From Comamonadaceae bacterium (GTDB lineage: Bacteria; Pseudomonadota; Gammaproteobacteria; Burkholderiales; Burkholderiaceae_C): 12,257 nucleotides of DNA. Both the position numbers and the translations under genes were made by a program. The notes below the pieces were generated by a model. The model did no database searches. It saw only the letters and a program-made list of their open reading frames with translations, and had not been told where the DNA came from. Below are positions 687 through 12,203 of this stretch, piece by piece. The stretch is taken from NCBI GenBank assembly GCA_947460065.1, contig CANHGF010000038.1, positions 1-12,257 of the forward strand, in the 5' to 3' direction. Every line of letters starts with the position of its first letter. Positions within the stretch are counted from its first letter, which is position 1.

Positions 687-1622
687 TCAGGAGGGCAGCA
701 GCCCCACCTTGGCCAGGCAGGCGGCAATCTCGGCCTTCTTCTTCGCATCGGGCAGCACCAGCGGCGCCCTGGCCGCCGCCGACTTCAGATGACCCATCTG
801 ATGCAGGGCCTCCTTGGTGGCCGCAAAGTAGCTGGTGAAGGTCTTGTGCAGCTGGTTTTCGAACACCGCGTCCATGATGGGCATGGCAAATTCGCTGTGG
901 ATCTGCTGGGCCACCTGGGCCGAGCCTTGGGTGGCCTCGTGCACCAGGTCGGACCAGCGCTGCGTGCCGATCACGCTGATGCCGATCAGCGCGCCATGCG
1001 CCTTGTGCAAGAGCATGCCCAGCAAAGCCGGCGCGTCTGAAGCCGCCAGGATGGACAGTTGATCGCCCACCGCGTTCATGATCTCGGCGAAGGTGGTGGG
1101 CGATGTGGCGCCCACCTTGACGCCGACCACGTGCGGCAAATCGGCCACCGCCTTCAGGGCCTCGGTGGTGTAGGCCACGCCCGATGACTCGCCGTACTGG
1201 AAGATGATCATCGGCAGCGCCACTTCGTCATTGAGCCGCTTGAACACCTTGCGCACCGACACCGGGTCGTGCGCCAGCATCCGGTAAGGCCGTACGTCAA
1301 AGGGCGGCAGCACCAGCAGCATGTCGGCGCCGGCGGCCTTGGCGTTGAGGCCTTGCACCACCAGGTCATCGATGTCATGGCTCTCAATGCCGGCAATCAG
1401 CTTGAGGCCGGTGGGCAGCACACTTTTGGCATGGGCCACGACCGAGCGGCGCTCCTCGGAGTTCATGGCCAGGATTTCGCCGGCATGACCGTTGACCGCA
1501 ATGCCGTACAGCCCGCTGGCCGAGCCCACCTGCCGAAGGTGGCGGGTCAGCTCCTCAAAGTCGATGGCGCCGCTTTCGGTAAAAGGGGTAACGGTGGCGG
1601 GGATCAGGCCGGTGATTTTCAT
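687..1622 (-). CDS. Dihydrodipicolinate synthase (DapA)-superfamily lyase/aldolase
   Basis: A 311-residue protein of the usual length for the class I, Schiff-base TIM-barrel DapA/N-acetylneuraminate-lyase superfamily. Visible features are the N-terminal GLIPATVTPF strand, the G45-H-A-G-E49 loop where DapA has GTTGE, the IIFQY segment with catalytic Tyr143, and VVGVKVGA with the Schiff-base Lys169. Members condense or cleave pyruvate or related 2-oxo acids with an aldehyde, or dehydrate sugar acids. The altered GHAGE loop argues against true lysine biosynthesis and for a catabolic aldolase or dehydratase; the substrate cannot be named. The ATG at 1620-1622 is preceded by AGGA seven bases upstream on the minus strand. 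The gene is divergent from the binding-protein gene at 1857 and converges on mrdA, so it may share the 1623-1856 control region with the transporter operon. Confidence 0.88.
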   Translation of the reverse strand: MKITGLIPATVTPFTESGAIDFEELTRHLRQVGSASGLYGIAVNGHAGEILAMNSEERRSVVAHAKSVLPTGLKLIAGIESHDIDDLVVQGLNAKAAGADMLLVLPPFDVRPYRMLAHDPVSVRKVFKRLNDEVALPMIIFQYGESSGVAYTTEALKAVADLPHVVGVKVGATSPTTFAEIMNAVGDQLSILAASDAPALLGMLLHKAHGALIGISVIGTQRWSDLVHEATQGSAQVAQQIHSEFAMPIMDAVFENQLHKTFTSYFAATKEALHQMGHLKSAAARAPLVLPDAKKKAEIAACLAKVGLLPS

Positions 1623-1758
1623 GCTTCATCCTGTGAAAAAAGGAGATGATTTAAAAACAGCAGCATCAAGCAGCTGCGCCGCGGCTTGCGTGGGCGCAGA
1701 GTTTAGGGTGCGCAGCGCATCCTCGGGTTTTCCTTGGTCCGTCTGCGCGCTAGCCCGA

Positions 1759-1787
1759 TTCCCATGGCGCCCGATGACACTTAGACT
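1759..1787 (+). promoter_or_regulatory. Candidate sigma70 promoter for the 1857-4315 operon
   Basis: TTCCCA (1759-1764) and TAGACT (1782-1787) match the -35 and -10 consensus at four of six bases each and are separated by exactly 17 bp. Transcription would start near 1794, leaving a leader of about 60 nt. No better pair was found by eye in the 234-bp divergent gap. This is a weak inference, since matches of this quality occur by chance. I found no convincing promoter for the minus-strand gene in the same gap. Confidence 0.3.
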
Positions 1788-1788
1788 G

Positions 1789-1805
1789 CGAAGCTTCAGG
1801 CTTCG
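1789..1805 (+). repeat. Perfect 6-bp inverted repeat in the leader of the binding-protein gene
   Basis: CGAAGC and GCTTCG flank a five-base spacer (TTCAG), directly after the candidate -10 box and about 50 bp before the start codon at 1857. There is no T-run, so it is not an intrinsic terminator. It could be a regulator half-site pair around the transcription start or a leader hairpin. A repeat this short can also arise by chance. Confidence 0.35.
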
Positions 1806-1843
1806 GTGCTGCAGTGCAGTACTCGGGCCCGCCGTTTCAATGC

Positions 1844-1850
1844 AAGGAGG
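1844..1850 (+). promoter_or_regulatory. Ribosome binding site fixing the start at 1857
   Basis: AAGGAGG is an almost full anti-Shine-Dalgarno match six bases before the ATG at 1857. The in-frame start further upstream at 1806 lacks such a site and would put a charged, non-signal-like extension before the signal peptide. The ATG at 1852 lies in another frame and is too close. Confidence 0.85.
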
Positions 1851-1856
1851 TATGCC

Positions 1857-2831
1857 ATGCAATTTATTCGTCGCCAAATTTTGAGTGCGCTTGCTCTGGG
1901 CCTGTTGGCCAGCTCGGGCGCATGGGCACAAAACTTCCCGAGCATCAAGCCGATACGGATTGTGGTGCCCTATGCGCCCGGTGGCCCGGTGGACGTGACG
2001 GCCCGCATCATGGCCGAGCGCATGGAGGCGCACCTGGGCCAACGCGTTTTGGTCGAGAACAAGGCCGGCGGCAATGCCACCATAGGCACCGAATTTGTGG
2101 CCCGTGCCGCCCCCGATGGTTACACCCTCCTGATGGCCGCGCCCGCGCACACCGCCAACCCCAGCCTGATCAAGTCCATCACCTTCGATACCGCCAAAGA
2201 CTTTGCGCCGATTGCCATGGTGATGGATCAGCCCATGCTCATTGCGGTCCATGCCTCCGTGCCGGCCAACAACGTCAAGGAACTGGTGGCGCTGGTCAAG
2301 GCCAATCCGAGCAAGTTCAACTACGGCACCTCGGGCGCGGGCGGCCCGCAGCACCTGATGGGTGAGTTGTTCAAGGCCGCTACCGGCACCCAGATCATGC
2401 ACGTCCCCTACAAAGGCGCAGCGCCTGCCGCTGCCGCACTTTTGGCCGGCGACACCCAGGTGGCCTTTAGTACCCCCACCAATATCTTGCCCCACGTCAA
2501 GTCCGGCAAGCTGCGGGCTCTGGCCAGCAGCACTGCGCGGCGCTCCCCGTTCTCGCCCGAGCTGCCCACCCTGGCCGAGTCGGGCGTGGCCGGTTTTGAG
2601 TATTCCTCCTGGACCGGACTGTTGGCGCCGGCGGCGACGCCGCGCGATGTGGTGCAAAAAATCAACGACGCGGTCATGAAGGCATTGGCAGAGAAAGAGA
2701 CCCGCGACAAGATGTTCCAAAACGGCATACAGCCGGTCGGCAGCTCGCCGGAGGAATTTGCGCGCTTCATTGCGCTGGACCTGGCGCGCTCGGCCAAGAT
2801 CATCCGGGAATCAGGAATACAGCCGGAATGA
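1857..2831 (+). CDS. Bug/TTT-family periplasmic solute-binding protein
   Basis: A 324-residue protein with a signal peptide: Arg-rich start, hydrophobic core LSALALGLLASS, and A-W-A before Q25 as the likely cleavage site. The mature protein has the hallmarks of the Bug family, the binding proteins of tripartite tricarboxylate transporters. These are the IRIVVPYAPGGPVDVTAR segment (about 34-50), ENKAGGNATIG (67-77), PDGYTLL (86-92), an AGGPQHL..E segment (161-170) and HVPYKGAAPAAAALLAG (182-198). Bug proteins bind small, usually carboxylated, metabolites in the periplasm. No TctA or TctB membrane genes are in the window, so it is an orphan that must use membrane partners elsewhere or act as a sensor. 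Its stop overlaps the next start (ATGA at 2828-2831), which ties it to the flavoprotein. Confidence 0.93.
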   Translation: MQFIRRQILSALALGLLASSGAWAQNFPSIKPIRIVVPYAPGGPVDVTARIMAERMEAHLGQRVLVENKAGGNATIGTEFVARAAPDGYTLLMAAPAHTANPSLIKSITFDTAKDFAPIAMVMDQPMLIAVHASVPANNVKELVALVKANPSKFNYGTSGAGGPQHLMGELFKAATGTQIMHVPYKGAAPAAAALLAGDTQVAFSTPTNILPHVKSGKLRALASSTARRSPFSPELPTLAESGVAGFEYSSWTGLLAPAATPRDVVQKINDAVMKALAEKETRDKMFQNGIQPVGSSPEEFARFIALDLARSAKIIRESGIQPE

Positions 2832-4315
2832 ATCAGCCAGGCGCTGGCGCGTCTATGCCGCAGGCCGCAGCCTTCGACGTGATCGTCGTCGGCGCTGGCG
2901 GCTCGGGCCTGGCCGCCGCCGCCAGTGCCGCGCAAAGCGGCGCTCGGGTGCTGGTGCTCGAGCGGCGCGCGCAGGTCGGCGGCACCACCTGGATGGCCGT
3001 CGGCTCGATCTCGGCGGCCCGCACGCAACTGCAGCAGCGCGCTGGCATCGACGATGACTTCGGTGGCTTTGTTGAAGATATGAACGCCTTTACCGCCGAC
3101 TTGCTGGCTCAGGACCATGCGCCGCTGCGGCGCATGCTGGCCGAGCAGGCCGGCATCACGGTGGACTGGCTGGCGCAGCAGGGGGTGGCTTTTGCCGGCC
3201 CCTACGAGGAGCCGCCGCATCGCATCCGGCGCATGCACAACACCATACCTGGCCCTGGCGCCATCGTGCAGCGCCTGCTGATCACCTGCAAGCGCCACGG
3301 CGTCAGCCTGCGCACCGGGATAACGGTCAGCCGCCTGCTGATGGACGCAGCCGGGCGGGTCGAGGGCGTTGAATATCTGGAGCAGGGCCAGCTCTGCCAG
3401 GCCATGGCGCGTGGCGGCGTGGTGCTGGCCAGCGGCGACTTCAGCGGCAGCCAGGCCATGCGGCAGGCACATTTGCCCGAGCCTGCCGCGCGCGCCAGCC
3501 CGATCAACCCGGACAACCAGGGTGAAGGCTTTCGCCTCGCGCAGGAGGCCGGCGCAGTGCTGGTTCACATGGACAAGATCTTCGGCCCGCAGATGCGCTT
3601 CGAGCGCAGCCAGCGCCCGGGTCTGAACGACACCCTGCCCTCTTGGCCCTGGCTGACCCGGCTGGGCGCGCTGTTCTTCATGCACGCGCCTGGCTGGATG
3701 CTGCAACCGCTGATCAAATCTTTGCTCATTGCCAATATGTCGCCGTCGGAAGAGCTGTTCAAGCAAGGCGCGGTGTTGGTGGACAAGCAGGGCCGGCGGC
3801 TCGATACCGCACGCCCGGCCGTGTCGGTGGCGATGACGCAAGAGCGGGCCGGCTATATCGTCATGCCCGGCGCGGTGGCCGACAAATTTCGCGCCCATCC
3901 CTTTTACCTATCGACCGCGCCCGGCATCGCTTATGCCTACGTGGGCGACTACGAGCGCGGCCGCCCCGATATCGTTCACCGCGCCAGCAGCCTGCCCGCG
4001 CTGGCCCAGGCCCTGGGCATGAACGCACAAGAGCTGGCCCAGTCCACCGATGCCGGTTCCGCACAAGGCCCTTGGCTCGCTCTGGGCCCGGTGCGCGCCA
4101 TGCTCACCACCACTGAGGGCGCGGTGCGGGTGGACACGAGCTGCCGCGTGCTCAATGCCAATGATCAGGTGATCGACGGCCTGTATGCGGTGGGCTGCAT
4201 CGGTCAAGGCGGTCTGCTGCTGCGCGGTCATGGCCTGCATCTTGCCTGGGCCTTTACCTCGGGTCGGGTGGCTGGCCAGGATGCGAGTCGTCAAGTCGCG
4301 CAGGGGGCAAGATGA
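2828..4315 (+). CDS. FAD-dependent dehydrogenase/reductase of the fumarate reductase flavoprotein class
   Basis: A 495-residue flavoprotein of the fumarate reductase/3-ketosteroid dehydrogenase/tricarballylate dehydrogenase type. The N-terminal FAD-binding motif is DVIVVGAGGSGLAAA (G22-x-G24-x-x-G27), followed by the acidic E45 and GGTT (51-54). The C-terminal flavin-contact region has GLYAVG (451-456), GQGG (459-462) and AWAFTSGRVAG (473-483). Residues about 273-304 form an unusually hydrophobic stretch in the substrate-capping region; I read this as cap structure or membrane contact, not a clear transmembrane helix. Such enzymes add or remove hydrogen across a C-C bond next to a carbonyl or carboxylate. 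The ATGA overlap implies translational coupling and a shared substrate with the binding protein. A later ATG at 2855 is possible, but the overlap favours 2828. The exact substrate is unknown. Confidence 0.88.
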   Translation: MNQPGAGASMPQAAAFDVIVVGAGGSGLAAAASAAQSGARVLVLERRAQVGGTTWMAVGSISAARTQLQQRAGIDDDFGGFVEDMNAFTADLLAQDHAPLRRMLAEQAGITVDWLAQQGVAFAGPYEEPPHRIRRMHNTIPGPGAIVQRLLITCKRHGVSLRTGITVSRLLMDAAGRVEGVEYLEQGQLCQAMARGGVVLASGDFSGSQAMRQAHLPEPAARASPINPDNQGEGFRLAQEAGAVLVHMDKIFGPQMRFERSQRPGLNDTLPSWPWLTRLGALFFMHAPGWMLQPLIKSLLIANMSPSEELFKQGAVLVDKQGRRLDTARPAVSVAMTQERAGYIVMPGAVADKFRAHPFYLSTAPGIAYAYVGDYERGRPDIVHRASSLPALAQALGMNAQELAQSTDAGSAQGPWLALGPVRAMLTTTEGAVRVDTSCRVLNANDQVIDGLYAVGCIGQGGLLLRGHGLHLAWAFTSGRVAGQDASRQVAQGAR

Positions 4316-4494: not shown

Positions 4495-5475
4495 ATGAAA
4501 AAACTCGTTGCGTCCCTGACCGCCGTTCTGGCGTGCCTGGGCCCAGTCGCGGCACAGGCCCAAGTCAAGTGGGACATGCCCACGCCCTATGCCGACTCTG
4601 AATTCCAGACCAAGAACGACTACCAGTTTGCCGAAGACGTCAAGAAGGCCAGCAATGGCGCTTTGGACATCAAGGTGCACAGCGCCAACTCGCTGATCAA
4701 AAACCCGGAGATCAAGCGCGCGGTGCAGACCGGCCAGGTGCAGATCGGCGAAATCTTCAAGCCCAACCTGGGGCCGGAAGATCCAGTCTTTGAGCTCGAT
4801 GCCATTCCGTTTTTTGCCGCCAGCTACAAAGAGGCGCGGGCCCTGCTCGAAGTCTCGCGCCCGGCCATCACCGAGAAGCTGATGAAGCAAGGCCTGCGCG
4901 TGCTCTACATGGTGCCGTGGCCCTCACAGGCTTTCTTCACCAAAAAGCCTATCAATTCGGTGGCCGAGCTCAAGGGCTTGAAGATGCGCACCTACAACGC
5001 GCAGACCGCTCGTCTGGCCCAGTTGATGGGTGTGGTTCCCACCACGGTGCAGGCCACCGAGATTCCCCAGGCCTTCACCTCGGGCATCATCGACACCATG
5101 TTCACCTCGGCGCCCACGGCCGTGACCACCAAGGCCTGGGACTACACCAAGTTCGTCTATGACACCCAGGCTTGGGTGCCCAAGAACGTGGTTTTCGTCA
5201 ATGAGCGCGCCTTCCAGGCTCTGCCTGAGGCGGTGCGTAAGGTGGTGCTCGAGCAGGCTGCCCTGGCCGAAAAGCGCGGCTGGGAATGGAGCCAGCGCGA
5301 CAACGACGAGTCGCCCAAAGTTCTGGTCAAGAACGGCATGACGCTGAACCCCATCAGCCCGGCCTTCAGCGCCGAGCTCAAGAAGATCGGCGACCAGATG
5401 CTCGACGACTGGCTGAAAAAAGCCGGCCCCGACGGCAAGAAGATCGTCGACGCCTACCGCGAAAAACTCAAGTAA
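4495..5475 (+). CDS. TRAP transporter substrate-binding protein (DctP family)
   Basis: A 326-residue periplasmic protein. The signal peptide has KK at its N-terminus, a hydrophobic core (VASLTAVLACLG) and likely cleavage after A22 (AAQA before Q23). Family landmarks are DPVFELDAIPFF (96-107), the LKGLKMRTYNAQT segment with Arg165, the conserved residue that salt-bridges a substrate carboxylate in DctP/SiaP proteins, and QATEIPQAFTSGIIDTMF (186-203). It delivers an organic acid anion to the DctQM membrane unit for sodium-driven symport. The start is set by AAGGAG (4484-4489) five bases before ATG; longer in-frame starts upstream would cross the promoter and lack a signal peptide at the N-terminus. 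The gene is followed by an intrinsic terminator, which would favour excess binding protein over permease. The family call is firm; the ligand is unknown. Confidence 0.94.
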   Translation: MKKLVASLTAVLACLGPVAAQAQVKWDMPTPYADSEFQTKNDYQFAEDVKKASNGALDIKVHSANSLIKNPEIKRAVQTGQVQIGEIFKPNLGPEDPVFELDAIPFFAASYKEARALLEVSRPAITEKLMKQGLRVLYMVPWPSQAFFTKKPINSVAELKGLKMRTYNAQTARLAQLMGVVPTTVQATEIPQAFTSGIIDTMFTSAPTAVTTKAWDYTKFVYDTQAWVPKNVVFVNERAFQALPEAVRKVVLEQAALAEKRGWEWSQRDNDESPKVLVKNGMTLNPISPAFSAELKKIGDQMLDDWLKKAGPDGKKIVDAYREKLK

Positions 5476-5492
5476 AACGACACTGCATGTCC

Positions 5493-5524
5493 AGCCCGCC
5501 CTCAAAGAGAGGCGGGCTTTTTTT
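5493..5524 (+). terminator. Intrinsic terminator between the dctP- and dctQ-type genes
   Basis: AGCCCGCC (5493-5500) pairs with GGCGGGCT (5511-5518). The inner CTC/GAG can pair around an AAA loop with one bulged A, and seven T residues follow (5518-5524). This is a classic GC-rich hairpin plus U-tract, 17 bases after the dctP stop and 15 bases before the dctQ start. No promoter is evident in the remaining gap, so downstream genes probably depend on readthrough. Confidence 0.85.
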
Positions 5525-5539
5525 CTAAGCAGGTAATTC

Positions 5540-6070
5540 ATGCGTTCTTTTGTGGACAAGCTCTATCTCGGCAGCGGCCTGCTGGCCGCCTTCTTCTTAT
5601 TCATGATTGGGGTGCTGGTGATCGCACAGGTTTTCGGCCGCCTGTTCGACTTCCTGATCCCCTCGGCCGATGACTTTGCCCGCCTGTGTTTGGCGGCCTC
5701 ATCGTTTTTGGCCCTGGCCCACACCCTGCGTCGGGGCGGGCATATCCGGGTCAACTTGTTGCTCGATCGCCTGTCTCCGACAGGTTCCCGGGTGCTTGAA
5801 TTGCTGTGCCTGGGTTTTGGCACTGCGCTGATGGCCTACTTCAGCTACTACTGCTTTGACATGGTGTATGACGGCATCTTGTTCCCCGACTACACCATCG
5901 GCCTGATCCCCATCCCGAAATGGATACCGCAGATCGGCATGACCATAGGCGTGGTGCTGCTGTTCATCGCCTTTGCCGATGACCTGGTCTGTGTCATCAG
6001 GGGCGAGCTGCCCTCGTATCAACGAAACGCCTCCGACAACCCTGAAGATCGCCACGCGGCGCACGAGTAA
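5540..6070 (+). CDS. TRAP transporter small permease (DctQ family)
   Basis: A 176-residue integral membrane protein with four predicted helices, at about residues 9-34, 47-64, 86-107 and 130-152. This is the standard DctQ topology. The conserved cytoplasmic-loop motif HTLRRGGHIRVNLLLDRL (61-78) is clear. DctQ forms the scaffold subunit that, with DctM, makes the membrane part of the TRAP transporter. The C-terminal tail (about 155-176) is hydrophilic. The start follows AGCAGG shortly upstream, a modest ribosome binding site. The dctM-type gene begins five bases after the stop, so the two are surely cotranscribed. Confidence 0.92.
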   Translation: MRSFVDKLYLGSGLLAAFFLFMIGVLVIAQVFGRLFDFLIPSADDFARLCLAASSFLALAHTLRRGGHIRVNLLLDRLSPTGSRVLELLCLGFGTALMAYFSYYCFDMVYDGILFPDYTIGLIPIPKWIPQIGMTIGVVLLFIAFADDLVCVIRGELPSYQRNASDNPEDRHAAHE

Positions 6071-6075
6071 ACACC

Positions 6076-7380
6076 ATGGAACAAACCGCAGCCGCCGGCA
6101 TACTGCTGGTCGCGATTTTTATCTTGCTGGGCGGCGGTCTTTGGATCGCGCTGTCACTGATCACGGTGGGCGTGATCGGCATCGCCTTTTTCTCCAACGC
6201 GCCGGTGGGCAAACTGCTGGCTACCACCGTCTGGGGCCAAAGCTCTGAATGGGCCATGACCGCCTTGCCCCTGTTCATATGGATGGGCGAGATCCTGTTT
6301 CGAACGCGCCTGTCCGAAGACATGTTCACCGGCCTGGCCCCCTGGGTGCGCAGGCTGCCGGGGCGGCTGTTGCACGTCAATGTGATTGGCTCTGGCATCT
6401 TTGCTGCTGTATCGGGCTCATCGACCGCCACCGCAGTGACCATCGGCCGCATGACCGTGCCCGAGTTGCTCAAGCGCGGCTACAACGAACAGGTGGTGCT
6501 GGGCTCGCTGGCCGGTGCTGGCACCCTGGGCATCATGATCCCGCCATCGATCATCATGATCGTCTACGGCGTGGCAGCCAATGTGTCGATTGCGCGGCTG
6601 TTCATCGCCGGTATCCTGCCCGGGCTTTTGCTGGTGCTGCTTTTTATGGGCTGCATCATGCTGCACGCCTGGATGAACCCGAAAGCGATTCCGCCGGCCG
6701 ACCCGCCCATCACCTTGGGGCAAAAGCTCTATGCCTCGCGCCGCCTGTTTCCGATCATCACCCTGATCGTGCTGGTGATCGGCTCGATCTATGCGGGCTT
6801 TGCCACCGCCACCGAGGCTGCGGGTGTTGGCGTCATGGGCGCGCTGATTTTGGCGGCGCTCACCGGCACTTTGAGTTGGAAGAGCTTTCGCGAAAGCCTG
6901 ATGCAGGCCACAGAAACCTCGTGCATGCTGGCTTTCATCATTGCCGGGGCGGCTTTCACCACCGTGGCCATGGGCTTTACCGGCATCCCCAAGGCGCTGG
7001 CCGAACTGATCATCGAGTGGCAGCTGACGCCGGCCATGCTGATCGCGACCCTGACCGTGCTGTATGTGATCCTGGGCTGTTTCCTCGACGGCGTCTCCAT
7101 GATCGTGCTGACCTTGTCGGTGGTGATGCCCATGATCAACGCGGCCGGCATCGATCCGATCTGGTTTGGCATTTACATTGTGCTGGTGGTCGAGATCGCC
7201 ACCATCACGCCGCCGGTGGGCTTCAACCTTTTCGTGCTGCAAGGACTGTCCAAACGGGACATCGTCTACATCTCCAAGGGGGCCATCCCGTCCTTTTTGG
7301 CACTGGTGCTGGCCTGCTGCCTGCTGTGGTTCTTCCCAGGCATTGCCACCTACCTGCCCTCGGTGATGTACGGCAACTGA
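6076..7380 (+). CDS. TRAP transporter large permease (DctM family)
   Basis: A 434-residue, strongly hydrophobic protein of usual DctM length, with roughly a dozen membrane segments. Diagnostic motifs include the NVIGSGIFAAVSGSSTATAV segment (102-121), LAGAGTLGIMIPPSI (145-159), a second-repeat GCFLDGVSMIVLTL and the C-terminal ITPPVGFNLFVLQG. The two SGSS/PP-type repeats reflect the inverted-repeat elevator fold of the ion-transporter superfamily. It carries the substrate with sodium across the inner membrane, fed by the upstream binding protein. The Shine-Dalgarno site is weak (GAG before the ATG), consistent with coupling to the dctQ-type gene five bases upstream. It ends just before the inverted repeat at 7391-7414. 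Confidence 0.94.
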   Translation: MEQTAAAGILLVAIFILLGGGLWIALSLITVGVIGIAFFSNAPVGKLLATTVWGQSSEWAMTALPLFIWMGEILFRTRLSEDMFTGLAPWVRRLPGRLLHVNVIGSGIFAAVSGSSTATAVTIGRMTVPELLKRGYNEQVVLGSLAGAGTLGIMIPPSIIMIVYGVAANVSIARLFIAGILPGLLLVLLFMGCIMLHAWMNPKAIPPADPPITLGQKLYASRRLFPIITLIVLVIGSIYAGFATATEAAGVGVMGALILAALTGTLSWKSFRESLMQATETSCMLAFIIAGAAFTTVAMGFTGIPKALAELIIEWQLTPAMLIATLTVLYVILGCFLDGVSMIVLTLSVVMPMINAAGIDPIWFGIYIVLVVEIATITPPVGFNLFVLQGLSKRDIVYISKGAIPSFLALVLACCLLWFFPGIATYLPSVMYGN

Positions 7381-7390
7381 TCGGCCCGGC

Positions 7391-7414
7391 GGCCTGGTTC
7401 AGCCGAACCAGGCC
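7391..7414. terminator. Perfect 10-bp inverted repeat at a convergent junction
   Basis: GGCCTGGTTC (7391-7400) and GAACCAGGCC (7405-7414) flank a 4-nt loop, 11 bases after the dctM-type stop. The repeat contains the stop codon and last codons of the leftward SDR gene (stop at 7399-7401). It probably acts as a shared hairpin that ends or stabilises both convergent transcripts. Neither side has a real T-run, so efficient intrinsic termination is uncertain. Confidence 0.5.
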
Positions 7415-8391
7415 TTGTGGGCCAAGGCCCACTGGGCGTAAGCGCCGGCCTGCAGCGCCACATCGGCCTGCAGGTCCCAGCCTTCGGCCTGGGCGCGCGA
7501 GCAACGCAAGGCGCTGCGCTGGCGGCTGAGGTCATCGAACAGATCGATATTGGGCGGCTGCGCGCCGTCGGTCAAGGCCCAATCAAAGCCGGGGTCGAGC
7601 AACTGCAAGGCCTGGCAAAAGACCGACGGGTGCCACACCCGGCCGGGCGAGAGGTTGTAGATGCGGTGGGCCAATGTATCGGCCTGCAGCATGCCGGCCA
7701 GGGCCTGTGCGACCTGCGCCGAATGCACCCAGTCGCGCTGGCCCTGCGGCGCCAGCCGCACCGGCTGGCCCTGCGCCCAACGTCGCGCGATTTGCCACAG
7801 CGGCGACAAGGTGTCGCGCAAGCCAGTATCGCGCTCCCAGGGGCCGTAGGCGGCGGTGATGCGCGCCTGCGCCACCCGCAGGCCATGCAGCTCTTCGTAG
7901 CGCCGGCCTATGCCCTCAATCGCCACCTTGCCGATGCCGTACAAATTGGCCGGTGAAGTGGGCTGTGTTTCGTCCAGGTCCCGGCCCTCAAAAATCGCCT
8001 GGCCGTAAACCGCCGAGGAGCTGGCCAAGACCACCCGGCGCACGCCGGCATGCACACAGGCGTCGAGCGCATTGACGGTGCCCATCAGATTGACATCGAG
8101 GATCTCGCGGGTCGCCACCTTCTCACGCGCTTGCGCGGCGGTGATCACCGCGCCGTGAAACAGGTGCGTGGCGCGGTGGTCGCCCAGGCACTGCTTGAAC
8201 TGCGGATCGCGGATGTCACCCTGCACCGTCGTAAGCTGTCCCGGCAAGCGGGCAAATTCGGACAGGGCCTGCGCCGGCAGCGGGTCCATCGAATGCGCGA
8301 GTACGGTATGGCCGGCCCGCAGCAGATGCTCAATCAGACTCAGGCCGATAAAGCCACTGCCGCCGGTGATGGCGATCACATCAGACGACAT
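7399..8391 (-). CDS. NAD-dependent epimerase/dehydratase family protein (extended SDR)
   Basis: A 330-residue extended short-chain dehydrogenase/reductase. The N-terminus carries the nucleotide motif TGGSGFIG (9-16), followed by GDIRD (58-62) and the SSSAVYG strand (124-130). The catalytic Y151-GIG-K155 and the C-terminal RDWVHSAQVAQAL segment (219-230) complete the family pattern. Members oxidise or epimerise sugars, sugar nucleotides or sugar acids using NAD(P). Two starts are possible. I chose ATG at 8391, which has GCAGG upstream and places the first beta strand at the N-terminus. A GTG at 8415 would add eight residues and overlap the upstream flavoprotein stop as GTGA, but lacks a ribosome binding site. 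The gene follows that flavoprotein closely and is presumably cotranscribed with it. The substrate is unknown; a role in acid-sugar catabolism is only inference. Confidence 0.87.
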   Translation of the reverse strand: MSSDVIAITGGSGFIGLSLIEHLLRAGHTVLAHSMDPLPAQALSEFARLPGQLTTVQGDIRDPQFKQCLGDHRATHLFHGAVITAAQAREKVATREILDVNLMGTVNALDACVHAGVRRVVLASSSAVYGQAIFEGRDLDETQPTSPANLYGIGKVAIEGIGRRYEELHGLRVAQARITAAYGPWERDTGLRDTLSPLWQIARRWAQGQPVRLAPQGQRDWVHSAQVAQALAGMLQADTLAHRIYNLSPGRVWHPSVFCQALQLLDPGFDWALTDGAQPPNIDLFDDLSRQRSALRCSRAQAEGWDLQADVALQAGAYAQWALAHKAWFG

Positions 8392-8411
8392 GGCGCCTGC
8401 GCGATCGGCGC

Positions 8412-10415
8412 TCACAGCGCACGGGCCAGCGCGTGGCCCTCATAGACCGCCTCGAGTGCGGTGCGCGCGCTGATGCAGTCACCGGCCAGGTGCCAGTTCA
8501 CCCGCTGACCCTGCGCGGCCAAAGCCTTCAGGCCCTGCTCCAGCTCCTGATCGCTACGCCCGTACTGGGCGCCGACCACGCTGTCAAAACCCTTCTCAAG
8601 CAGCACCTCGCCAGTTGATACATCTTCGAGCGTCAGCGTCTGACCGTCATAGGCCAGCAACTGGCGCAGCAGCACCAGACGCACGCCCTTGTCGCGCAGC
8701 CGCTTGCGGTTGGACAGGGTCGAGTAGATGGTGGCGCGCCAGGCAAAGCCGGCCACCGGCGTGAAGACGGTCACTTGCTTGTCCAGGTCGGCCAGGTGCT
8801 CGATCACCGACAGCGCGGTCCATTCGCCGGTCAGGTCGTAAAACGCGACCCGCTGGCCCAGGGCCTGCGGATCGGCCAGCGCCTGCTCCTGGGTGAGCAA
8901 AGCCTGCCCCTGCGGGGGCGTGACCGCACTGGCGCGGGCGCCTGTGGCCACAATCACTTCGTCAAAGCCGGCCTCCAGCACCGCCTGCGCCGTGGCTTGG
9001 CGGCCCAGCTCGATGTGCACGCCGTGGCGCTTGAGCATTTGCTGCTGGTGATTGAACAGGTGCCCAAAGTCCTGCCGCAAGGCCATGTGCTGCGTCCACA
9101 GCAGCTGCCCACCCAGTTGCTGGCTGCGCTCCCACAGGGTGACGCTGTGGCCGCGCGCCGCCGCCACCCAGGCCGCCTCGCAGCCGGCCGGCCCACCGCC
9201 GATGACCAGCACCCGCTTCGCACTTGCGGTGCGGTCCTGCTCGGCCTCGGGCCAGCGCGCTTCCTGGCCGGCGCGCGGATTGATCAAACAGGTGATGGCG
9301 ATGTTGCGCTCAAGCCGCTGGGAGCAGCCCTGGTTGCAGCCCAGGCAGTGGCGCACCTCATCGGCGCGGCCCTGCGCGTATTTGTTGACCAGCGCTGGGT
9401 CGGCCACATGCGCCCGCGCCATGCCCACCAGATCGGCATGGCCGGCGGCCAGCATGTCCTGCGCGTCCTGCAGCGTGCGGTATTTGCACACGGTAAAAAC
9501 CGCGGTGTTCAGGCCGGCCCCCCGCAGCGCCTGCCGGATGCCCTGCGGCAGGGCGCGAAACTCGGCCACGCCAAAAGCCATGTCGGCCATTTGCGTGCCC
9601 AGCGAATGGCTCATGTGATAGGCCGAGTGCGACACATGAATGAAGTCAATCGCGCAGGCCTGCGCCGCCGCTACCGCGATCTCCTGCGACATCGGCAGGG
9701 TCAGCCCGCCGGGCATGAATTCCTCGGCGCTGATGCGTACGCCCAGGCAAAAATCAGGGCCCACCGCTGCGCGCACCGCCTGCAGGACCTCCAGCGGAAA
9801 GCGCATGCGGTTTGGCACGCTGCCGCCGTACTCATCCTCGCGCTGATTGGACATGGGCGAGAGAAACTGCTGCAGCAAATGCCCGTGGCCCCAGTGCAAT
9901 TCAATGCCGTCCATGCCGGCGGCCACCATATTCAGGGCCACCCGCACATGGGCATCGCGCACCTCGTCCATGCCCTGGCGGTCCAGTGCACGCGGGTGGG
10001 TGGCGCCCAGCGACCAGCGCAAATCACTGGCTGAGACGGACACCGTGCGCTCAAACTCGCCGTCGATCTGCCGGCCCATGTGGCAGATCTGCGCAATCAG
10101 CGCTGCGCCTTCGGCATGCACTGCCTGGGCCACTGCGGCAAAGGCCTCGACCGCGCCGGGCAGGTAGCCGGAGACGCCCTGCGGCCGGCCCAGGGTGTTG
10201 TCCATCACCCGGATGGCCTCGAAGATGATGGCGCCCACACCGCCGCGGGCGCGTTCGCGGTGGTAGTCGACATGGCGCTGGCTGGGCAGGTGGTGCTCGC
10301 CGAAATTGGTGGTGTGCGCCGGCACAAAAATCCGGTTGCGCAAGCTCAAGCGGTTGAGCGTGATGGGCTTGAACACATCGGGGTAGGTGGCATGGCCGGG
10401 CAATGTCTGGCTCAT
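8412..10415 (-). CDS. Old Yellow Enzyme-type FMN/4Fe-4S/FAD oxidoreductase (dienoyl-CoA reductase / TMADH-like)
   Basis: A 667-residue two-part flavoenzyme. Residues about 10-345 form the FMN-binding TIM barrel: VFKPITLNRLSLRNRI near the start, HWGHGHLLQQFLSP (174-187), DEYGGS (194-199) and VGMARAHVADP. Cysteines C357-x2-C360-x3-C364-x11-C376 form the 4Fe-4S site. The C-terminal half has a dinucleotide motif GGGPAG (406-411), ATGA (490-493) and a late AGDC. The second nucleotide-binding fold (about 521-555) has no GxGxxG and instead reads VAFYDLTGEW, as I recall for trimethylamine-dehydrogenase-like members. It may therefore be an amine dehydrogenase/demethylase or an enoate-type reductase. 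The ATG at 10415 was chosen because the 57-residue extension to 10586 has no family similarity and crosses a likely promoter. GAGAG precedes the ATG. Confidence 0.9.
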   Translation of the reverse strand: MSQTLPGHATYPDVFKPITLNRLSLRNRIFVPAHTTNFGEHHLPSQRHVDYHRERARGGVGAIIFEAIRVMDNTLGRPQGVSGYLPGAVEAFAAVAQAVHAEGAALIAQICHMGRQIDGEFERTVSVSASDLRWSLGATHPRALDRQGMDEVRDAHVRVALNMVAAGMDGIELHWGHGHLLQQFLSPMSNQREDEYGGSVPNRMRFPLEVLQAVRAAVGPDFCLGVRISAEEFMPGGLTLPMSQEIAVAAAQACAIDFIHVSHSAYHMSHSLGTQMADMAFGVAEFRALPQGIRQALRGAGLNTAVFTVCKYRTLQDAQDMLAAGHADLVGMARAHVADPALVNKYAQGRADEVRHCLGCNQGCSQRLERNIAITCLINPRAGQEARWPEAEQDRTASAKRVLVIGGGPAGCEAAWVAAARGHSVTLWERSQQLGGQLLWTQHMALRQDFGHLFNHQQQMLKRHGVHIELGRQATAQAVLEAGFDEVIVATGARASAVTPPQGQALLTQEQALADPQALGQRVAFYDLTGEWTALSVIEHLADLDKQVTVFTPVAGFAWRATIYSTLSNRKRLRDKGVRLVLLRQLLAYDGQTLTLEDVSTGEVLLEKGFDSVVGAQYGRSDQELEQGLKALAAQGQRVNWHLAGDCISARTALEAVYEGHALARAL

Positions 10416-10456
10416 CGATGCTCTCTCGGGTAAGGGCAGGTCAGGGTGTGCAGACC

Positions 10457-10485
10457 ATTCTAGGCACAGCGAGCCCTCGGGATAA
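10457..10485 (-). promoter_or_regulatory. Candidate sigma70 promoter for the flavoprotein/SDR operon
   Basis: On the minus strand TTATCC (10480-10485) and TAGAAT (10457-10462) are 17 bp apart. The -10 box matches five of six consensus bases, the -35 only three. Transcription would start near 10450, leaving a leader of about 35 nt before the ATG at 10415. It lies in the 190-bp divergent gap (10416-10605). In that gap I saw no strong promoter for the plus-strand gene; AATACT at 10576-10581 is a possible -10 without a good -35. Confidence 0.4.
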
Positions 10486-10591
10486 CCAGTGCCGGACCTG
10501 CGCAAAATGACAAGCAGAAACTCGGGTTTGTAGGCCCCACAGCCGCCAGAGAAAGTTGGTAGCATCGCCTGCCAGAATACTGACACCTGTT

Positions 10592-10598
10592 AAGAGGA
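10592..10598 (+). promoter_or_regulatory. Ribosome binding site fixing the start at 10606
   Basis: AAGAGGA lies seven bases before the ATG at 10606. It would be too close to the in-frame TTG at 10600, and it is better spaced for 10606 than for the second in-frame ATG at 10612. Confidence 0.75.
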
Positions 10599-10605
10599 CT
10601 TGCTC

Positions 10606-11295
10606 ATGACCATGCCCTGGGAAGGGATCGTTTCTGCCGATGAAATCGCCGCTTACGAGGCTGCCGGCTTTGGCCGTCCGCAGGCCCAGGGCAAGCGCCC
10701 CGCCTTGCTGATCATCGATGTGCAGTACCGCACGGTGGGCACGCAGCGCCAGCCGTTTTGGGAGTCGATCAAGGAGTTCAAGACCTCCTGCGGCGAGGTC
10801 GGCTGGCAAGCGGTCGACCACATTGCGCCCCTGCTGGCCCTGTTTCGCGAGAAGAACCTGCCGGTGCTTTACCCCTATGTGGCCCCCAAGGAAAACTTCG
10901 ACCTTGGCCGCCTGGCCGAAAAAGTGCCGGCCCTGATGGGCGTGGCCGCACACGGCTACCAGTTCGTGCCCGAGATCGCGCCGCGCGAACGCGACGTGCT
11001 GCTGCCCAAGAAGCATCCGAGTGCCTTCTTCGGCACGCCCCTGGCCAGTTATCTGATCGACCTGCAGGTCGACAGCCTGGTGGTCACCGGCTGCACCACC
11101 AGCGGCTGTGTGCGTGGCAGCGTGGTCGATGCCTTTGCGTATAACTTCAAATGCACTGTGCCGATTGAATGCGTCTACGACCGCAGCGCCACCAGCCATG
11201 CGGTCAACCTGTTTGACATGGCGGCCAAGTACGCCGAGGTCAAGCCGGTCAGCGAAGTCATGCAACACATCCGTTCCTTGCCCACCGCCCCATGA
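10606..11295 (+). CDS. Cysteine hydrolase of the isochorismatase superfamily, N-carbamoylsarcosine amidase-like
   Basis: A 229-residue cytoplasmic hydrolase with the full catalytic triad pattern: Asp38 in ALLIIDVQ, a lysine in LPKKHPSAFFGT (K135 or K136), and nucleophile Cys168 in TGCTTSGCVRGSVVDAF. The preceding bulge (TGCTTS) and the later RSATSHAVNLFDMAAKYAEV segment resemble the N-carbamoylsarcosine amidohydrolase branch, which cleaves N-carbamoyl compounds to amine, CO2 and ammonia. Related enzymes instead hydrolyse maleamate, nicotinamide, ureidoacrylate or isochorismate, so the substrate is not proven. The start follows AAGAGGA. The stop overlaps the start of the PuuE-like gene as ATGA (11292-11295), indicating coupling. 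The pairing with a ureide-ring-hydrolase homologue supports an amide or ureide substrate. The triad is intact, so the protein should be active. Confidence 0.88.
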   Translation: MTMPWEGIVSADEIAAYEAAGFGRPQAQGKRPALLIIDVQYRTVGTQRQPFWESIKEFKTSCGEVGWQAVDHIAPLLALFREKNLPVLYPYVAPKENFDLGRLAEKVPALMGVAAHGYQFVPEIAPRERDVLLPKKHPSAFFGTPLASYLIDLQVDSLVVTGCTTSGCVRGSVVDAFAYNFKCTVPIECVYDRSATSHAVNLFDMAAKYAEVKPVSEVMQHIRSLPTAP

Positions 11296-12203
11296 TGAAA
11301 AAATTCGACAACAAGTTCAACCGCTATCCCTTCTCACAACTGCCCAAGCGGCCGGTCTACAACTGGCCCAATGGCAGCAAGCTGGCGGTCTACTTTGCGC
11401 TCAACGTTGAGGCCTTCGAATTCGGCCGCAACCCCGGGCCCGACTTCACCTCGCTGCCGGCCGCGCCCTTTCACCGCGGCTATGCCTACCGCGACTACGG
11501 AAACCGAGTGGGCATCTGGCGCATCCTTGAGCTGTTCGATCGCTACCAGATTCCCCTGGCCATCCTGACCAACACCAGCGTCTATGACGTCTGCCCCGAG
11601 GTGCTCGAGCCGTTTCGGGCGCGTGGCGACGAATTCGTCGGCCACGGCCGCACCAATTCCGAGCGCCAGATCGACATGGACGAGGCCACCGAGCGCGCCA
11701 TGCTGCAGGAGGTGCGCGAGCGCTTCATCCAGGAGGAGGGCAAGCCGCCCAAAGGCTGGCTTGGCCCCTTCATCTCGCAAAGCGCCAAAACCCCCGAGCT
11801 GCTGCTCGAGACCGGCTACACCTATCAGATGGACTGGTTCTTTGATGAGCAGCCGCAGTGGTTCCGCACCGACCGTGGCCCCATCTTGAGCGTGCCTTAC
11901 CCCTCGATGGAGCTCAATGACATCCCGGCCTTCATCAACCGCGGTGCCAGCGACCAGGAATTCACCACCATGGTCACCGACGGCTTCGACCAGCAACTGG
12001 CCGACGGCGAGCGCCACGGCTGGCCGCTGGTCTGCGGTATCTCGCTGCACACCTTCATGATGGGCCAGCCCCATCGCGCCCAGCAGCTCAAGCGCATTCT
12101 TGAGCACATGGCCGCCCAGCGCTCACGCATCTGGTTCACCACGCCAGGGGAGATTGCCGACCATGTGATGGCGCTGCCCGAAGGCACGGTGGCCAAACCC
12201 TGA
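11292..12203 (+). CDS. PuuE-like hydrolase of the polysaccharide deacetylase fold
   Basis: A 303-residue protein with the pattern of the PuuE (uricase-type allantoinase) branch of carbohydrate esterase family 4. Landmarks are RPVYNWPNGSKLAVYFALNVE (20-40, where ordinary deacetylases have the TFDD metal/catalytic motif), YRDYGNRVGIWRILELFD (66-83), FVGHGRTNS (115-123), GWLGPF (155-160), MDWFFDEQP (180-188), LNDIPAF (208-214) and SLHTFMMGQPHR (251-262). The canonical HxxxH metal pair is H118 with Asn122, so the standard zinc site is degenerate. This fits the reported metal-independent activity of Pseudomonas PuuE. No signal peptide is present, so it is cytoplasmic and not a wall or chitin deacetylase. 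It may open a hydantoin-like or other cyclic amide. The ATG could be 11292 or the adjacent 11295. Allantoin itself is not established as substrate. Confidence 0.88.
   Translation: MMKKFDNKFNRYPFSQLPKRPVYNWPNGSKLAVYFALNVEAFEFGRNPGPDFTSLPAAPFHRGYAYRDYGNRVGIWRILELFDRYQIPLAILTNTSVYDVCPEVLEPFRARGDEFVGHGRTNSERQIDMDEATERAMLQEVRERFIQEEGKPPKGWLGPFISQSAKTPELLLETGYTYQMDWFFDEQPQWFRTDRGPILSVPYPSMELNDIPAFINRGASDQEFTTMVTDGFDQQLADGERHGWPLVCGISLHTFMMGQPHRAQQLKRILEHMAAQRSRIWFTTPGEIADHVMALPEGTVAKP

What the first reader, a model, noticed from the sequence alone, without database searches (positions are those of the whole stretch)
8412..12203. Possible N-methyl/cyclic ureide degradation module: PuuE-like ring hydrolase, N-carbamoyl amidase-like hydrolase and divergent TMADH/OYE-type flavoenzyme
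Seen: an ATGA-coupled pair of a PuuE-like hydrolase and a cysteine hydrolase resembling N-carbamoylsarcosine amidase, divergent from an FMN/4Fe-4S/FAD enzyme. Known: PuuE opens the hydantoin ring of allantoin. N-carbamoylsarcosine amidase follows hydantoin-ring opening in creatinine breakdown. TMADH-like enzymes demethylate N-methyl compounds. Inference: the three could run in series on a hydantoin, ureide or lactam. I see no urate, allantoate or creatinine genes, so this is not a textbook purine or creatinine locus.
Basis: partly seen in the sequence, partly recalled or inferred. Interest (0 to 1): 0.72.

Follow-up and report, generated by a model that had tools for sequence, protein, structure and literature searches.

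The report
Ring-opening and amidase enzyme pair
A group of bacteria, several of them from ponds and lakes, carries a tightly coupled pair of genes whose products most likely open a small nitrogen-containing ring and then release its nitrogen as ammonia, and genome comparison suggests that two unrelated ring-opening enzymes stand in for one another in this still unassigned pathway.

Summary
The genes are as reported. An isochorismatase-type cysteine hydrolase (ISO, 10600-11295) overlaps a PuuE-like hydrolase (PUE, 11292-12203) by ATGA; a 4Fe-4S/FMN/FAD old-yellow enzyme (OYE) lies divergently. ISO-PUE is the conserved core: adjacent in 10 of 12 near loci, the other 2 contigs ending at ISO. OYE is beside ISO in 2 of 12 and travels with an overlooked SDR gene (7399-8415). 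OYE lacks the covalent-FMN cysteine of trimethylamine dehydrogenase.

Main new result: in 70 genomes with this ISO family, the ring-opener is usually either window-type PUE or an unrelated hydantoinase-type enzyme (HYD). Outside the window's clade: 5 PUE, 52 HYD, 0 both, 1 neither. This looks like non-orthologous replacement of one step. ISO is also enriched beside PrpD and methylisocitrate-lyase-type genes; its fold is nearest to maleamate amidases, tied with N-carbamoylsarcosine amidase.

Best reading: cyclic imide (or similar lactam) -> half-amide -> dicarboxylate + NH3. A hydantoin/ureide substrate remains possible. The order OYE-SDR-imidase-amidase resembles fungal nicotinate breakdown. 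All activities are inferred from sequence.

The parts
10600..11295 (+). ISO: isochorismatase-superfamily cysteine hydrolase (predicted half-amide/N-carbamoyl amidase), D40/K137/C170, R195, H200
11292..12203 (+). PUE: PuuE-like NodB-fold hydrolase (predicted cyclic imide/amide ring opener); E40, H118, D181, D185, H253 invariant in 29 aligned rows
8412..10415 (-). OYE: FMN/4Fe-4S/FAD old-yellow-enzyme family oxidoreductase, accessory
7399..8415 (-). SDR: extended short-chain dehydrogenase; beside OYE in 9 of 11 ISO genomes that have an OYE ortholog
4498..7380 (+). TRAP transporter DctP (4498-5475), DctQ (5540-6070), DctM (6076-7380); relatives (45-99%) next to ISO-PUE in 6 of 12 window-clade loci
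1851..4315 (+). TctC-type solute-binding protein (1851-2831) overlapping an FAD/fumarate-reductase-type flavoprotein (2828-4315); absent from the same place in the near relative L021, so membership is uncertain

Best explanation
ISO and PUE form a two-step hydrolytic nitrogen-release unit. A small N-heterocyclic compound enters through the TRAP transporter. In lineages that have them, OYE and SDR prepare the ring by reducing a C=C and oxidising a ring hydroxyl to a ring carbonyl. PUE then hydrolyses a C-N bond of the resulting cyclic imide (or imide-like lactam). ISO hydrolyses the primary amide of the product, giving ammonia and a (substituted) dicarboxylate that enters central metabolism through hydratase/lyase-type enzymes. 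Shown here: gene structure, conservation, linkage, mutual replacement of PUE and HYD, folds, conserved residues. Inferred: all activities, the order of steps, the substrate class, the OYE, SDR and transporter roles.
Against: No activity is known for any member found here. Maleamate-amidase and N-carbamoylsarcosine-amidase matches are tied, so fold does not choose half-amide over N-carbamoyl. PrpD and lyase genes are linked mostly to HYD-type or 46-50%-PUE loci, rarely to window-type PUE loci; of that set the window has only an FAD gene. In several alphaproteobacterial loci a different PUE (46-50%) and HYD both lie near ISO. Four window-clade genomes have window-type PUE and an unlinked HYD. 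Of the 5 PUE genomes outside the clade, PUE is near an ISO in 3 (L108, L128, L186) and not in L104, L106. The E<=1e-75 bound was set after seeing the first 35 genomes. Two plasmid loci carry a PLP aminotransferase near ISO or PUE, which would suit an amino-acid product; I did not test aminotransferases against background. The isomerase-like L186 protein is below the NCBIfam cut-offs (EutA 81.9 vs 318).
Confidence: 0.55

Rival explanations
1. Hydantoin/ureide route: PUE opens a hydantoin, allantoin-like ureide or dihydropyrimidine, and ISO cleaves the N-carbamoyl product to an amino acid, CO2 and NH3.
For: PUE's best solved relative is PuuE allantoinase; the alternative partner HYD is of the hydantoinase/dihydropyrimidinase/allantoinase family; ISO is as close to N-carbamoylsarcosine amidase as to maleamate amidases; HyuAB-like genes occur in a few loci; PLP aminotransferases stand in two annotated loci.
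Against: No urate, allantoate or creatinine genes among the 10 window proteins scanned; two of the enriched partner families are di/tricarboxylate enzymes; PUE is far below the PuuE model cut-off (124.5 vs 424.6 bits).
Confidence: 0.25
2. Pyridine-carboxylate route: the ring is a dihydroxypyridine tautomer such as citrazinate, opened to an aconitamide; ISO gives cis-aconitate, which would explain aconitase and PrpD neighbours (pathway recalled; nothing on it was listed).
For: Aconitase-like genes near ISO in L182 and near a more distant ISO (43%) in Antarctobacter; LeuC-like in four loci; xanthine-dehydrogenase-type hydroxylase and FAD monooxygenase beside an ISO (57%) on a Variovorax plasmid.
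Against: The window shows none of the hydroxylase or aconitase genes; whether PuuE-type enzymes accept such rings is unknown.
Confidence: 0.12
3. ISO and PUE are neighbours without shared substrate, moved together by transfer; the enriched families are simply common catabolic genes in these bacteria.
For: All families are abundant in these genomes (203 PUE-like, 259 PrpD copies in 35 genomes); some loci lack PUE linkage.
Against: Observed linkage exceeds the genome-wide expectation 14- to 53-fold for the four families tested; PUE and HYD exclude each other outside the window clade; ATGA overlap.
Confidence: 0.08

Closest known systems
PuuE allantoinase (3cl6; TIGR03212)
   Different: 124.5 bits against a cut-off of 424.6; pocket motif HGRTNSERQ instead of HGYRWIDYQ; no purine genes in the window; partner is ISO
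Maleamate amidases NicF (3uao/3ot4) and Ami (4l07/4l08)
   Different: ISO has an extra conserved stretch after the catalytic Asp (YRTVGT...FWESIKEF..SCG); partner is a ring hydrolase
N-carbamoylsarcosine amidohydrolase (1nba, 26st)
   Different: 29% identity (1nba); 1nba has TAAGC and lacks the His; no creatinine/sarcosine genes in the window
Fungal nicotinate module HxnT-HxnW-HxnM-HxnN (PMC9304392, passages read)
   Same: Order of proposed reactions: OYE, SDR, PuuE-related imidase, amidase
   Different: HxnN is a FAAH-type amidase, HxnM is nearest to HpPgdA; analogous, not shown to be orthologous; substrate unknown here
2,4-dienoyl-CoA reductase / TMADH / mycofactocin OYE_2 flavoenzymes
   Same: FMN, 4Fe-4S motif and FAD/NAD domains
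   Different: No covalent-FMN cysteine; 527 bits vs 793 cut-off for mycofactocin OYE_2

Membership tests
PuuE allantoinase | NCBIfam TIGR03212 at curated cut-off | tested here: not met
   124.5 vs 424.6 bits
PuuE allantoinase | NodB-derived fold of PuuE | tested here: met
PuuE allantoinase | (S)-allantoin hydrolysis | not testable with these tools
   needs an assay
HpPgdA-like branch (nearest known structure of imidase HxnM) | Second histidine of HGYSHE as in 3qbu | tested here: not met
   PUE has HGRTN at 118-122; that the motif binds the metal and marks the branch is recalled
Maleamate amidohydrolase (NicF/Ami) | Asp-Lys-Cys triad in the isochorismatase fold | tested here: met
Maleamate amidohydrolase (NicF/Ami) | Distinctly closer to it than to N-carbamoylsarcosine amidase | tested here: inconclusive
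N-carbamoylsarcosine amidohydrolase | Creatinine/sarcosine gene context | tested here: not met
   none among the 10 window proteins scanned; the rest of the genome was not searched for it
RutB / BiuH | NCBIfam cut-off | tested here: not met
   37.6 vs 378 and 40 vs 370 bits
Trimethylamine/histamine dehydrogenase | Cysteine for 6-S-cysteinyl FMN | tested here: not met
   Thr (PAHTT) at the position of the histamine dehydrogenase Cys; PAHTT also in 9 other orthologs read. That this Cys bears the FMN is recalled
Trimethylamine/histamine dehydrogenase | 4Fe-4S motif plus FMN and FAD/NAD domains | tested here: met
   shared with 2,4-dienoyl-CoA reductase
Mycofactocin OYE_2 | TIGR03997 cut-off | tested here: not met
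   527 vs 793 bits

The most novel reading that the evidence does not exclude
The locus is part of an undescribed bacterial 'imide route' for alkylmaleimides, such as those from chlorophyll and heme decay (methyl ethyl maleimide, hematinic acid). PUE or HYD opens the maleimide, ISO frees ammonia, aconitase/LeuC/PrpD-type hydratases hydrate the alkylmaleate, and methylisocitrate-lyase-type enzymes cleave it to a keto acid plus a carboxylate, with OYE-SDR feeding in oxidised pyrrolinones. It would be the bacterial analogue of the fungal HxnT-W-M-N steps, with a repeatedly swapped ring opener.
Probability: 0.12. Interest if true: 0.8.

Novelty: new variant of a known kind. Interest (0 to 1): 0.5.

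Why it matters
ISO belongs to a large family whose members bear only generic or automatic names in the 120 hits listed: 5312 of the 8000 scored candidates matched at E <= 1e-40. The apparent swap of a hydantoinase-type enzyme for a PuuE-type one ties the ISO substrate to the product of a cyclic amide/imide ring opening, so one pair of purified enzymes could assign a pathway found here in Proteobacteria and some Actinomycetota. If the substrates are tetrapyrrole-derived maleimides, it would bear on how the nitrogen of degraded chlorophyll is recovered; the hits listed (20 of 317, 12 of 114, 8 of 9 papers; titles and abstract starts seen) named no bacterial pathway for them.

Tried and rejected
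TMADH-type demethylation: rejected as the leading idea (no covalent-FMN cysteine). An OYE-type His-His pair (HWGHGH) looked like evidence for an ene-reductase, but the first His is Gln in L193 and L196, so I do not rely on it; my pattern missed three other orthologs. Reading the 40-53% PUE homologs as the same system: rejected as a whole; in the 16 loci L023-L038 and the 16 loci L164-L179 no ISO relative was found at E <= 1e-12; a few pair with an NTF2-like gene or an amidase-signature amidase. Half-amide versus N-carbamoyl from sequence or fold: inconclusive. Literature: searches for cyclic imide/half-amidase, maleimide/succinimide degradation, maleamate amidase/isochorismatase, hematinic acid, citrazinic acid, PuuE/imidase, MmgE with isochorismatase and hydantoinase, dimethylmaleate, Blastobacter imidase: none of the listed titles or abstract starts describes this module; some lists were capped (20 of 317, 12 of 114, 12 of 13, 8 of 9), and the library is open-licence PMC only. 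Passages of five papers were read; no paper was read whole. Rows dropped: 3 of 76 loci had no ISO ORF in the neighbour count; 6 of 76 (L137-L139, L141, L142, L144; ISO 34-43%) were not among the 70 genomes; the background test used 35 of 76 loci, which I picked after seeing the neighbour maps, leaving out the window clade and near-duplicates; the tree left out L071, L079 (no partner visible) and the fragment L140, and gave no state to L121. A 132-residue PUE fragment at 56% in the genome of L088 was not counted as window-type. No Rfam or tRNA hits. One search scored only 3 candidates per genome, so its low OYE count (own genome plus one 36% hit in 369) is a weak control.
Full report
Window and genes. 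Its nearest named relatives are Comamonadaceae metagenome assemblies; some record titles point to a pond or lake (pond_D4, Lanier, ErkenSummer). Genes: end of a PBP2/mrdA-like gene (to 637; my reading of the sequence, not scanned), DapA-like (687-1622 -), TctC (1851-2831), FAD/fumarate-reductase-type flavoprotein (2828-4315), TRAP DctPQM (4498-7380), then on the minus strand SDR (7399-8415) overlapping OYE (8412-10415), and on the plus strand ISO (10600-11295) overlapping PUE (11292-12203). The contig ends 54 bases after PUE.

What is conserved. There are 12 window-clade loci (L069-L079 and L140; ISO 84-99%). PUE follows ISO in the same orientation in 10; the other 2 contigs end at or just after ISO. 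TRAP relatives lie beside ISO in 6 of 12. The window-type OYE-SDR pair lies there in 2 of 12 (L140 cannot show it). In L072-L074 a different OYE (29-30%) is near; one also lies downstream of PUE in L069 and L070. So ISO-PUE is the core, TRAP is frequent, OYE-SDR is optional.

A second ring opener. In the 73 loci with an ISO ORF the commonest neighbour within 6 kb is an Amidohydro_1 enzyme of the hydantoinase/dihydropyrimidinase/allantoinase type (HYD, 32 loci), then PUE-like (20), TctC (18), PEP-mutase/methylisocitrate-lyase type (18), MmgE/PrpD (18), FAD flavoprotein (15), CobW (11). I tested four of these families against background in 35 whole genomes (166 Mb): PrpD 259, lyase type 195, PUE-like 203, HYD 129 copies. 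Within 10 kb of ISO: HYD in 30 of 35 (expected 0.57), PrpD 18 (1.15), lyase 16 (0.81), PUE-like 12 (0.88). TctC, FAD and CobW were not tested this way.

Replacement. Window-type PUE means 67% identity or more; the next full-length homologs are at 53% or less. It occurs in 4 of the first 35 genomes, and these are exactly the 4 without a close HYD (E <= 1e-75, a bound set after seeing this set). With the same bound in the other 35 genomes: HYD only 21, PUE only 7, both 4 (all window clade), neither 3 (two with the contig ending at ISO, and L121). Outside the window clade: PUE 5, HYD 52, both 0, neither 1 (Fisher 1.3e-6). Shared ancestry weakens such a test, so I also used an ISO tree (quick method): 6 partner changes, at least 3 on starred branches, with HYD absent on the PUE side in 3 of 3 independent pairs; that number is too small for significance by itself. 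Of the five outside PUE genomes, PUE is near an ISO in L108, L128 and Pigmentiphaga (L186, beside a second ISO of 62%), and not in L104 or L106.

What the neighbours say. Named examples: Variovorax PBL-E5 plasmid PrpD-FAD-PrpD-GTP-binding (CobW-like)-HYD-ISO; Hydrogenophaga CobW-HYD-ISO-lyase annotated prpB; Antarctobacter ICL/PEP mutase-GntR-aconitase-NTF2-HYD-ISO, with a more distant ISO of 43%; Variovorax boronicumulans xanthine-dehydrogenase type-FAD monooxygenase-ISO (57%), with a PLP aminotransferase 1.3 kb on. Four alphaproteobacterial loci have a LeuC-like gene, and three of them genes that I read as HyuA/HyuB-like. L182 has aconitase- and lyase-like genes beside ISO. In Pigmentiphaga (L186) a protein of the maleate isomerase/arylmalonate decarboxylase kind (best solved match 4fq5, E 1e-15; below the NCBIfam cut-offs) and an FAD monooxygenase precede ISO-PUE; L185 has a related gene divergent from PUE. 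Most of these families handle di- and tricarboxylates, which fits ISO releasing one; the aminotransferases point the other way.

OYE and SDR. OYE orthologs (47-97%) occur in 11 of 70 ISO genomes: 8 of the 15 with window-type PUE and 3 of 55 without. SDR is beside OYE in 9 of 11; in L195 and L196 a choline-dehydrogenase-like GMC gene is there instead. In L134/L201 OYE-SDR stands with HYD, CobW and ISO; in L194 with LeuC-like, lyase-like and HyuAB-like genes. So OYE-SDR appears tied to the same pathway by more than one neighbourhood.

Comparison. In Aspergillus nidulans nicotinate breakdown (PMC9304392, passages) an OYE (HxnT), an SDR (HxnW, ring hydroxyl to ring carbonyl), a PuuE-related cyclic imidase (HxnM) and an amidase (HxnN) act in that order. 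The window has the same four enzyme types as two pairs, from partly different families. I treat this as analogy. Maleimides and hematinic acid are reported from leaves and lake sediments (PMC7318184, passages); this is the basis of the novel case only.

Verdict. The series idea holds for PUE and ISO and may extend to OYE-SDR. The substrate class is best read as a cyclic imide giving a half-amide (about 0.55), with hydantoin/ureide as the main rival (0.25). No activity has been measured.

Noticed in passing
window 687-4315; L021 3319-5132: DapA, TctC and FAD genes stand between the mrdA-like gene and the TRAP genes in the window, but no match to them lies between these in the 99% relative: a variable site.
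   Followed up: partly
L069, L070, L075-L078, just after PUE: A 115-aa protein of unknown kind and a SAM methyltransferase-type protein follow PUE in 6 window-clade loci, beyond the end of the window contig.
   Followed up: no
G000 and relatives: The window's genome holds 10 PuuE-like genes; one order-level relative (G048) holds 16.
   Followed up: no
L195 7429-9066, L196 10913-12547: OYE orthologs paired with a choline-dehydrogenase-like GMC oxidoreductase instead of SDR.
   Followed up: partly
L026, L030, L169-L172: An NTF2-like gene recurs near 45-47% PUE homologs, in L171 and L172 followed by an amidase-signature amidase: perhaps a sister pathway.
   Followed up: no
L161 8001-10219: Variovorax RA8 plasmid: PUE (50%) overlaps an amidase-signature amidase, with HyuAB divergent: another ring-opener/amidase pairing.
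   Followed up: partly
L121, L123, L124: Tandem PUE-like genes (32-35%) with DUF4387, AtuA and a second isochorismatase-type gene near ISO.
   Followed up: no
L075 record title: A metagenome assembly titled Bordetella parapertussis whose ISO groups with the window clade, so the title looks wrong.
   Followed up: no
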